A stretch of 64,000 nt of DNA, from assembly GCF_000521605.1 (NCBI RefSeq), contig NZ_CP006942.1:1488001-1552000 (forward strand). Direction: 5' to 3'. The notes under the pieces were generated by a model. The model did no database searches, was not told the origin of the DNA, and saw only the letters and a list, made by a program, of their open reading frames with translations. The translations under genes and the position numbers were made by a program. This stretch comes from Mannheimia sp. USDA-ARS-USMARC-1261 (lineage in GTDB: Bacteria > Pseudomonadota > Gammaproteobacteria > Enterobacterales > Pasteurellaceae). Shown here piece by piece: positions 2,210 to 4,259 of this stretch. Position 1 is the stretch's first letter. Each line of letters opens with the position of its first letter.

Positions 2210-2698
2210 TTAGTCGTTTGATGCAGCTGATGCGGTATTACAAAAGCCTGCAGGGAATAAGCTTGTATCGCTCCCTTTACAGCTTGTAGACCAACTAATA
2301 GTAGTATTATTTTTTGGAATTGAAGGAGTTAATGTATAGCTATATCCATCAAGCGAGCCTTTCCCTGTTACAGTAATCACGCCTTTATTCACAGTAATCG
2401 AATTAAGATATTTGGTTTCATTAATACTCGTTTTATTGGCTTGAATACCATTTGTACCACCGGAGCAATTATCCAGCCCATTACTATTATAAATACACAG
2501 CTCAACATCTGATTTATAAGAAGCCGAAGCCCGCAACAGCTCCGATAACGCCGCTTTTTGCGTATAAGAGTTGTAGGACGGAATTGCAATGGTTGCAAGA
2601 ATGGCAATAATAGCAATCACGATCATCAACTCAATTAAGGTAAACGCCTTGTGTAATTGACGAGTGTAAAGCGGTCGAAAATGTACAATTTTTTGCAT
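2210..2698 (-). CDS. pilA: Type IV pilin PilA/ApfA (major subunit)
   Basis: Type IV pilin, the structural subunit of the pilus used in adhesion, twitching and DNA uptake. The 18-residue positively charged leader ends in HKA, and the mature protein starts [17 protein letters not shown]. Glu5 and the long hydrophobic helix are present. Ala rather than Gly at -1 matches the ApfA pilin of A. pleuropneumoniae as I recall it. Four cysteines occur in the globular part, two as [11 protein letters not shown] and two as [14 protein letters not shown]; the latter pair is the usual C-terminal disulfide loop. The gene is first in the pilABC operon, and a CRP-S-like palindrome lies about 90 bp upstream. 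Confidence 0.95.
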
Positions 2699-2785
2699 AT
2701 AAATTCCTTATGAATAAAACGCCAAAACAGCTTGGCGATGAAAGTGTGCAAACTTTTTACCATTTTTGCGATAAACAAATTTCAA

Positions 2786-2807
2786 TTTTTCGATGCAGAT
2801 CGAAAAA
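2786..2807. promoter_or_regulatory. Candidate CRP-S (Sxy/TfoX-dependent) competence operator
   Basis: Perfect palindrome with arms TTTTTCGAT and ATCGAAAAA around GCAG. The core (T)TCGA-N6-TCGA(A) has C in place of the second T of canonical TGTGA, which is the hallmark of CRP-S sites controlling competence genes in Pasteurellaceae. It lies in the pilA-radA intergenic region, about 88 bp upstream of the pilA start. That distance suits a class II or near-class II position for a pilA promoter. The pil operon is a known member of the H. influenzae competence regulon. The assignment is by pattern and context only. Confidence 0.65.
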
Positions 2808-2820
2808 ATAAAATTTCCAT

Positions 2821-2850
2821 CTGTTTATCCATACAGTTTTTTGCTAGAAT
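2821..2850 (+). promoter_or_regulatory. Candidate LexA box and promoter upstream of radA
   Basis: CTGT-TTATCCAT-ACAG (2821-2836) is an exact match to the CTGT-N8-ACAG core of enterobacterial LexA operators. A possible -10 element TAGAAT follows at 2845-2850, and the box would overlap the -35 region. The downstream gene is radA, a recombination factor. One such core is expected by chance in about 65 kb, so the support comes from its position. Confidence 0.4.
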
Positions 2851-2879: not shown

Positions 2880-4259
2880 ATGGCAAAAGCACCAAAAACC
2901 GCCTATGTTTGTAATGATTGCGGTGCAGAATATTCCCGTTGGATGGGGCAATGCAAAGAATGTAAGGCTTGGAATACGATTAGCGAAGTACGATTAATTT
3001 CGAGTAAAGAAGCTGCAAAATCTGACCGCTTCAGTGGCTATGCTGGCGAAACCTCAGGCAAAGTACAGGTACTTTCCGATATTAGCCTACAAGAAGTACC
3101 TCGTTTTAGCAGTGGCTTTAATGAGTTGGATCGTGTGCTAGGTGGTGGTGTTGTGCCGGGTTCAGCTATTCTGATTGGCGGACACCCCGGTGCTGGGAAA
3201 AGTACATTATTGCTACAAGTAATGTGCGGATTGGCTCAACATATCCCAACTCTCTATGTAACAGGGGAAGAATCATTACAACAAGTTGCAATGCGTGCTA
3301 ATCGTTTGGGTTTACCTACGCAAAATCTAAAAATGCTCTCTGAAACTTCTGTAGAGCATATTTGCAATATTGCCGACCAAGAAAAGCCGAAAATTATGGT
3401 GATCGACTCTATACAAGTAATGCACTTGTCAGATATTCAATCTTCTCCCGGCAGTGTTTCACAGGTTCGAGAATGTGCCTCGTTTTTAACTCGTTATGCC
3501 AAAACCCGCCAAGTGGCAATTATTATGGTTGGGCACGTTACCAAAGATGGTACTCTTGCCGGTCCAAAAGTATTAGAACACGCTATTGATGCCTCATTAT
3601 TACTGGAAGGTGAATCTGACTCTCGTTTTAGAACCTTACGTAGCCAAAAAAACCGCTTTGGTGCGGTCAATGAATTAGGCGTATTTGCAATGACAGAGCT
3701 GGGCTTGAAAGAAGTTAAAAACCCTTCTGCCATTTTCTTGAGCCGTAGCGAAGAGCAAACACCGGGTAGCTCGGTAATGGTGCTTTGGGAAGGGACACGT
3801 CCATTACTGGTTGAAATTCAAGCGTTGGTGGATCACTCGATGCTGGCTAACCCTCGCCGTGTAGCAGTCGGTTTAGATCATAACCGTTTATCGCTATTAC
3901 TTGCCGTTTTGCATCGACACGGCGGATTACAAATGTCGGATCAAGATGTTTTTGTGAACGTGGTTGGTGGCGTAAAAGTAACAGAAACCAGTGCCGATCT
4001 CGCCTTGATCTTAGCGTTAATTTCAAGTTTCCGAAATCGCCCTTTGCCGCAAGATTTGGTTGTGTTTGGTGAAGTAGGATTAGCTGGCGAAATCCGCCCT
4101 GTTACCAGCGGACAAGAACGTATCAGCGAAGCCGCTAAACACGGCTTTAGGCGAGCGATTATTCCACACGGAAACGCTCCCAAAAAAGCGATTAAAGATA
4201 TGGAGGTATTTACCGTGAAAAAACTCAGCGATGCGTTGGATATTCTTGGCAATCTATAA
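2880..4259 (+). CDS. radA: DNA repair/branch-migration protein RadA (Sms)
   Basis: RecA-like ATPase that drives branch migration in homologous recombination. In naturally competent bacteria it also helps integrate incoming single-stranded DNA. The 459-residue protein has the family order: an N-terminal C4 zinc finger (Cys11, 14, 25, 28), a RecA-like ATPase core with Walker A GHPGAGKST near residues 101-109, the RadA-specific KNRFG motif, and a C-terminal Lon-protease-like domain. The start has a purine-rich GAGGAT upstream. It is monocistronic, with a hairpin terminator after the stop. It shares its upstream region with the divergent pilin gene, where a LexA-like and a CRP-S-like site are found. 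Confidence 0.97.
   Translation: MAKAPKTAYVCNDCGAEYSRWMGQCKECKAWNTISEVRLISSKEAAKSDRFSGYAGETSGKVQVLSDISLQEVPRFSSGFNELDRVLGGGVVPGSAILIGGHPGAGKSTLLLQVMCGLAQHIPTLYVTGEESLQQVAMRANRLGLPTQNLKMLSETSVEHICNIADQEKPKIMVIDSIQVMHLSDIQSSPGSVSQVRECASFLTRYAKTRQVAIIMVGHVTKDGTLAGPKVLEHAIDASLLLEGESDSRFRTLRSQKNRFGAVNELGVFAMTELGLKEVKNPSAIFLSRSEEQTPGSSVMVLWEGTRPLLVEIQALVDHSMLANPRRVAVGLDHNRLSLLLAVLHRHGGLQMSDQDVFVNVVGGVKVTETSADLALILALISSFRNRPLPQDLVVFGEVGLAGEIRPVTSGQERISEAAKHGFRRAIIPHGNAPKKAIKDMEVFTVKKLSDALDILGNL

What the first reader, a model, noticed from the sequence alone, without database searches (positions are those of the whole stretch)
2786..2850. Competence (CRP-S) and SOS (LexA-like) sites side by side between pilA and radA
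A perfect 9+4+9 palindrome of CRP-S type and an exact CTGT-N8-ACAG box lie 13 bp apart in one divergent region. This could link DNA uptake machinery to expression of the recombination factor RadA. The CRP-S form here (TTCGA/TCGAA) differs slightly from the H. influenzae TGCGA/TCGCA.
Basis: partly seen in the sequence, partly recalled or inferred. Interest (0 to 1): 0.5.

Follow-up and report, generated by a model that had tools for sequence, protein, structure and literature searches.

The report
SOS box on radA, beside pilA
In one branch of a bacterial family the DNA-repair gene radA lies next to a DNA-uptake pilus gene and carries a conserved damage-response (SOS) switch, while the competence switch beside it most likely belongs to the pilus gene, so the two look like neighbours rather than one shared control.

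Summary
In detail: a 9+4+9 CRP-S palindrome (2786-2807) and an exact CTGT-N8-ACAG box (2821-2836) lie 13 bp apart between divergent pilA and radA. Alone, the box is unremarkable (0.53 expected per window). Context makes it convincing. Of 8 intergenic exact boxes in this genome, 7 precede repair genes (recN, dinB, uvrD, lexA, a umuD-like gene twice, radA). In 41 genomes with this arrangement, this one included, the box is kept with 0-1 mismatch (40 keep CTG-N10-CAG). It starts 24-26 nt before a conserved radA -10 in 38; in one genus it has decayed and a new box lies right after the -10. Of 49 family genomes where radA follows another gene, 1 has a box within 150 nt. So radA very probably joined the SOS regulon once, in the Actinobacillus-type clade. 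The CRP-S site is the ordinary pilA competence site: it is found at pilA where radA is elsewhere, and its spacing fits pilA. Joint control of radA by competence is not supported across the clade (11 of 41 have the competence spacing to radA), though this genome happens to have it. TTCGA half-sites are already in print. By-product: CRP-S sites also precede several toxin genes.

The parts
2210..2698 (-). pilA, type IV (competence) pilin; followed by pilB (798-2189, -)
   Evidence: ORF; NCBIfam NF007862 prepilin peptidase-dependent pilin, 144.7 bits over cut-off 138
2743..2748 (-). predicted pilA -10 (CACACT on the - strand), 37 nt after the CRP-S end
   Evidence: AGTnTG-type block 42 or 43 nt before CRP-S in 34 of 41 genomes, no match in 7 (block chosen after seeing the alignment); competence promoters share a -10 at offset 36/37
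2768..2771 (-). conserved pilA promoter block (GCGA on +), at the place of a -35
   Evidence: 18 nt before CRP-S in 38 of 41 genomes
2786..2807 (.). CRP-S site TTTTTCGAT-GCAG-ATCGAAAAA (Sxy-dependent CRP site) of pilA
   Evidence: 0 mismatches; 41 genomes with 0 (12), 1 (18), 2 (10) or 3 (1) mismatches, C6/G17 lost in one, L083; same kind of site at pilA in the sister clade
2821..2836 (.). LexA operator CTGTTTATCCATACAG over the radA promoter
   Evidence: exact; 41 of 41 genomes at 0-1 mismatch; best of 256 half-sites
2842..2850 (+). predicted extended -10 of radA, TGC-TAGAAT; the box covers about -36 to -21 from the inferred start near 2857
   Evidence: TTTGnTAnnAT conserved in the alignment of 40 genomes; box start to -10 start 24-26 nt in 38 of 41
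2880..4259 (+). radA (sms), DNA repair helicase
   Evidence: TIGR00416, 764 bits over cut-off 403

Best explanation
Two ordinary regulatory sites serve two different neighbours. The CRP-S palindrome is the cAMP-CRP plus Sxy activation site of pilA, working at about -60 of the pilA start. The CTGT-N8-ACAG box is a LexA operator lying over the -35/spacer region of a separate, clade-conserved radA promoter (extended -10 TGnTAnnAT); LexA would block polymerase there, and RecA-driven LexA cleavage after DNA damage would raise RadA together with LexA, RecN, DinB, UvrD and the UmuD-like protein. The arrangement most simply arose once, in the ancestor of the Actinobacillus-type (Apl) clade, where radA lies divergent from pilA instead of behind another gene as in the sister clade. 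Shown: sites, conservation, spacing, distribution, replacement of the box in one genus. Inferred: protein binding, repression, induction, transcription starts, direction of the change.
For: 7 of 8 intergenic exact boxes of this genome precede repair genes. radA boxes: 41 of 41 linked genomes (own included) at 0-1 mismatch, 26 exact, 12 of 17 genera with an exact one; the next best of 256 half-site patterns gives 4 exact. Core CTG-N10-CAG in 40 of 41; box start to radA -10 start is 24-26 nt in 38 and -6 in 3. The 3 are one genus (L066, L069, L072), where the old box has decayed and a new one lies directly after the -10: the site was replaced but still sits on the promoter. Positive control: lexA has a 0-1 mismatch box in 30 of 30 loci read (22 exact; 34 of 35 genomes matched). 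Distribution: of 49 genomes without the pilA neighbour 1 has a 0-1 mismatch box in 150 nt before radA and 2 in 300 nt, and there radA follows a same-strand ORF by at most 54 nt in 44 of 49. The linked genomes form one side of a branch of the radA tree, support 99/88. CRP-S with pilA: 0-3 mismatches in 25 of 30 sister-clade pilA loci, a box of 0-1 mismatch near the best CRP-S match in 1 of 30; asymmetric sites point to pilA 16 to 3 among 40.
Against: No binding or expression data were available; the promoters are predicted from conservation and chosen after seeing the alignment. The genomes are related, so 41 of 41 is far fewer than 41 independent events (17 genera, one clade). 15 of 41 boxes have one mismatch, and L083 lacks the last G of the core. 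Only 90 of 139 family genomes were read upstream of radA. In L080 the contig ends before pilA. Scored one offset at a time, the -10 search does not single out 36 or 37 (37 ranks third for the 8 competence promoters and fourth for pilA); only the paired 36/37 score peaks there. Outside the linked clade 13 of 80 radA loci also have a near-box (0-1 mismatch within 250 nt, one exact), so the gain may not be unique.
Confidence: 0.85

Rival explanations
1. Joint control: the CRP-S site also activates radA, so competence induces RadA for recombining incoming DNA, and LexA gates the same promoter.
For: In this genome the radA -10 lies 37 nt after the CRP-S end, the same offset (36/37) as at other competence promoters; 5 of 7 genomes of its genus, own included, have 36 or 37. 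The half-sites of the G000 site are symmetric, so it does not point to pilA alone. In S. pneumoniae radA is competence-induced (PMC11708029, abstract and outline read).
Against: Only 11 of 41 genomes have offset 36/37 to the radA -10; the others range from 38 to 49, whereas the pilA-side blocks stay at fixed distances. Averaged over 40 genomes the radA side scores at background at paired offset 36 (z -0.3) against 2.1 for pilA and 3.2 for 8 other competence promoters. Asymmetric sites point to pilA 16 to 3; the rule is not absolute, since the comF site of this genome is turned the other way. ComM is named the canonical transformation helicase of Gram-negatives (PMC11612176, abstract and passages).
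Confidence: 0.15
2. LexA at the box represses pilA as well, tying DNA-uptake pili to DNA damage.
For: Shared short intergenic region; box conserved beside CRP-S in 41 genomes.
Against: The box centre lies about 92 bp upstream of the inferred pilA start, beyond the CRP-S site; its distance to CRP-S varies (11-16 nt in 37, 23 in one, 44-45 in three); at sister-clade pilA 1 of 30 loci has a 0-1 mismatch box near the best CRP-S match (in 5 of the 30 that match has 4-5 mismatches and may not be the pilA site).
Confidence: 0.05
3. The box is a chance match, or a by-product of a conserved -35 element.
For: At least one exact match occurs in 40 of 100 shuffled windows; N8 is partly conserved in the clade, often TTATTTA.
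Against: 256-pattern control (26 exact against at most 4), replacement of the box in genus g20, repair-gene context of the other intergenic boxes.
Confidence: 0.05

Closest known systems
LexA/SOS operators of gammaproteobacteria (CTG-N10-CAG, recalled)
   Same: Sequence, A+T-rich centre, position over the promoter, same box at lexA in the same family
   Different: The gene is radA, which is not among the H. influenzae SOS genes named in PMC6957337 (lexA, recA, recN, recX, ruvA, impA; passage read)
CRP-S (Sxy-dependent CRP) sites of Pasteurellaceae competence genes
   Same: 22-bp palindrome with C6/G17, upstream of pilA, competence offset to the -10; the pilA site printed for H. parasuis in PMC5809987 Table 3 is letter for letter, printed flanks included, that of loci L068 and L070 here
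   Different: Nothing essential; TTCGA half-sites are already printed there
Competence-induced radA of Streptococcus pneumoniae (PMC11708029, abstract)
   Same: A regulatory tie between RadA and a stress or uptake programme; there its induction served tolerance to a genotoxic agent, not transformation
   Different: There a competence sigma factor box serves the radA operon (section heading); here the conserved tie is the LexA box

Membership tests
LexA (SOS) regulon operator | CTG-N10-CAG palindrome with A+T-rich centre | tested here: met
   CTGTTTATCCATACAG; core in 40 of 41 genomes
LexA (SOS) regulon operator | overlaps a promoter of the controlled gene | tested here: met
   starts 24-26 nt before a conserved extended -10 in 38 of 41, directly after it in 3; the promoter is predicted, not mapped
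LexA (SOS) regulon operator | conserved at orthologues, and the same motif at lexA in the same family | tested here: met
   41 of 41 linked genomes at 0-1 mismatch, but 1 of 49 others: conserved in one clade only; lexA 30 of 30 loci read
LexA (SOS) regulon operator | LexA binds; gene induced by DNA damage in a LexA-dependent way | not testable with these tools
   needs gel shift and expression
CRP-S competence site | 22-bp CRP-like palindrome with C at position 6 and its partner at 17 | tested here: met
   40 of 41 linked genomes keep both; definition of the two positions from PMC5809987
CRP-S competence site | upstream of a competence gene at the usual spacing | tested here: met
   pilA -10 at offset 37; paired offset 36/37 also the peak for 8 other competence promoters
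CRP-S competence site | activation needs Sxy and cAMP-CRP | not testable with these tools
   needs sxy and crp deletions
joint CRP-S/LexA control of radA | CRP-S at the competence offset (36/37) from the radA -10, kept among relatives | tested here: not met
   11 of 41 genomes, this one among them
joint CRP-S/LexA control of radA | fixed spacing between the two sites | tested here: not met
   11-16 nt in 37, 23 in 1, 44-45 in 3 of 41

The most novel reading that the evidence does not exclude
In this genome's own lineage one symmetric CRP-S site sits about 60 bp from both the pilA and the radA start and activates both, while LexA over the radA promoter keeps RadA low until damage or incoming single-stranded DNA activates RecA. 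radA would then be read by competence AND the SOS signal. I saw no report of such logic in the listings of searches.
Probability: 0.13. Interest if true: 0.65.

Novelty: new member of a known kind. Interest (0 to 1): 0.4.

Why it matters
If true, it adds a recombination helicase to the SOS regulon of one branch of the Pasteurellaceae and suggests how: radA came to lie beside a competence gene and has since kept its own LexA-controlled promoter, with a replaced operator in one genus. It also warns that two regulatory sites side by side need not be joint control; the spacing of each site to its own promoter can tell them apart. The competence spacing seen here (-10 at 36/37 nt after CRP-S) may help to find further competence genes, and the search for CRP-S sites led to toxin genes.

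Tried and rejected
Joint control of radA by CRP-S: rejected as a clade-wide feature because of spacing and asymmetry; left open for this lineage. LexA control of pilA: 1 of 30 sister-clade loci has a box near CRP-S. Chance: rejected by the 256-pattern control. In one search two loci cut by a contig end (L339, L347) were read at the wrong place; one search read them at the right one (no site in either), and the counts did not change; L330 has a stop inside. Named relatives: the one genome-contig scan gave 80 loci, by title three of them Pasteurellaceae (GY-402, Lonepinella, Aggregatibacter), which fall in the sister clade of the tree; so the name of the linked clade is inferred (letter match of one pilA site with PMC5809987, and the Hin and Apl subclades of PMC1626085, abstract and passages). 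Literature on LexA control of radA: searches. I opened the radA passages of six papers; none reports it, and in two of them the only mention is a reference to archaeal RadA. The other papers listed were not opened. Erill 2004 and Cameron and Redfield 2006 are not held, so I make no claim beyond these searches.

Rows left out or special: 49 of 139 family genomes were not read upstream of radA; the tree holds 12 sister-clade rows (9 fetched from the 49, 3 named), not all 49; pilA upstream DNA was read in 30 of 40 sister-clade genomes searched; L080 is counted as linked though its contig ends before pilA; the best CRP-S match of L083 lacks C6 and G17; one search uses 40 linked genomes (without L080) and 25 of the 30 sister-clade pilA loci (CRP-S with at most 3 mismatches).

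Full report
OBSERVATION. One exact box per window is not rare (mean 0.53). In the whole 2,393,449-bp genome there are 19 exact boxes (control pattern 6). By my ORF lie inside genes and 8 between genes; the 8 precede recN, dinB, radA, a umuD-like gene (two boxes; match under the NCBIfam cut-off), lexA and uvrD, and one is the stem of a terminator-like hairpin.

CONSERVATION. radA was found in 139 of 139 family genomes. I read the upstream DNA of 90 (30 loci, 60 stretches). In 40, pilA is the divergent neighbour; a 41st (L080) has the same two sites but its contig ends too soon. All 41, this genome included, carry a box with 0-1 mismatch (26 exact; 12 of 17 genera with an exact one). The best of the other 255 half-sites in the same CRP-S-to-ATG stretches gives 4 exact. 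Of the other 49 genomes 1 has a 0-1 mismatch box in 150 nt before radA and 2 in 300 nt; the exact one lies inside the preceding ORF by position (L130). In these 49, radA follows a same-strand ORF, by at most 54 nt in 44; the one tested (L088) is a CYTH-domain protein. As a positive control lexA has a 0-1 mismatch box in 30 of 30 loci read (34 of 35 genomes searched had a match). A radA tree of 56 rows (41 linked, 12 sister-clade, E. coli, Vibrio, Aeromonas) puts the linked genomes on one side of one branch, 99/88, and the sister rows on another, 99/93. The simplest history is one gain; a loss in the sister clade is not excluded by the tree alone.

ANATOMY. The alignment of 40 regions shows, from pilA to radA: an AGTnTG block, a GCGA block, CRP-S, the box, and TTTGnTAnnAT. 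The GCGA block is 18 nt from CRP-S in 38 of 41 and the AGTnTG-type block 42 or 43 nt in 34 of 41 (no match in 7). Read on the pilA strand this is a poor -35 and -10 with a 16-17 nt spacer. Eight other promoters of this genome (comA, comE1, radC, comF, pilF2, a pilin gene, rec2, ligA) have their best paired -10 score at offset 36/37 after CRP-S (z 3.2). Of these, rec2, ligA, comE1 and radC are supported; comA, comF, pilF2 and the pilin (L039, no Pfam match) are named by sight. pilA in the sister clade (25 loci) and here has the same offset (z 2.1 each), whereas the radA side of 40 genomes peaks at 37-39 (z at 36, -0.3). The weights were set by hand, and scored one offset at a time 36 or 37 does not stand out (37 is third for the eight promoters, fourth for pilA). 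Box start to radA -10 start is 24-26 nt in 38 of 41. In the remaining 3, one genus, the old box is degraded and a new one begins right after the -10 (L069, L072 exact; L066 one mismatch with the old box half decayed). The distance from CRP-S to the box is free (11-16, 23, 44-45 nt), as is that from CRP-S to the radA -10 (36-49; 11 of 41 at 36/37). Asymmetric CRP-S sites are turned to pilA 16 to 3 among 40, taking as forward the order (G at 5, A at 18) that 6 of the 9 competence sites of this genome show; comF is turned the other way.

MECHANISM. LexA occupying 2821-2836 would cover about -36 to -21 of the inferred radA start and block it; damage would release it. CRP with Sxy at 2786-2807 would activate pilA from about -60. 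Both are inferences from position; no binding or expression was tested. In this genome the site is by accident or design also about -60 from radA, so a competence input to radA is not excluded here.

KNOWN OR NEW. The pilA CRP-S site is known: PMC5809987 Table 3 (section read) prints for H. parasuis the very site and flanks of loci L068 and L070, with TTCGA half-sites, and the main text of that paper has no occurrence of radA or LexA. For radA, PMC6957337 (passages) names SOS genes of H. influenzae without radA. Five paper searches were made; the radA passages opened in six of the listed papers do not report LexA control of it, the rest were not opened, and two key papers are not held. Verdict: a new member of a known kind.

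BY-PRODUCT. Among the CRP-S sites of this genome several precede toxin genes (Pfam: HicA, RelE PF06296, Gp49, BrnT, ParE, RhuM); their six promoters have the competence -10 offset (z 2.6). In the genus, 7 of 7 BrnT matches, down to 28% identity, have a CRP-S site with at most 2 mismatches 100-150 nt upstream. In the family, 30 BrnT loci were read of 64 listed matches: 8 of 15 in the radA-linked clade and 1 of 15 outside have such a site; a scrambled control gives 0 of 30. HicA: 2 of 7 in the genus, both in this genome. The RelE gene was found in 1 of 7 genomes of the genus, this one. The known case is toxTA of H. influenzae, with relatives in Actinobacillus (PMC6957337, passages); the one search for BrnT with competence listed no paper on it by title. 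This may deserve its own study.

Noticed in passing
L024, L028, L031, L034, L042, L048 (own genome), site at 1501-1522 of each: CRP-S sites stand before toxin genes of several families (HicA, RelE, RhuM, Gp49, BrnT, ParE). The Gp49 kind may be the Actinobacillus relative of the published competence-regulated toxTA (recalled, not tested). BrnT: 7 of 7 matches in the genus and 8 of 15 loci in the clade against 1 of 15 outside.
   Followed up: partly
L226-L255 (pilA promoters of the sister clade): In 17 of 25 pilA promoters with a CRP-S site at 0-3 mismatches, the DNA uptake signal core (A)AGTGCGGT (motif recalled) starts 0-2 nt after the CRP-S site.
   Followed up: no
L144, 1501-1516: An exact CTGT-N8-ACAG is the stem of a terminator-like hairpin with flanking A and T runs, so hairpins can mimic SOS boxes.
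   Followed up: no
L030, 1501-1522: A CRP-S site with one mismatch lies some 250 nt before an ORF that looks like an L-asparaginase (by sight).
   Followed up: no
L217 and 12 other loci among L146-L225: 13 of 80 radA upstream regions outside the linked clade have a box-like sequence at 0-1 mismatch within 250 nt, one exact (L217, -80); LexA control of radA may have arisen elsewhere too, or these are chance.
   Followed up: no
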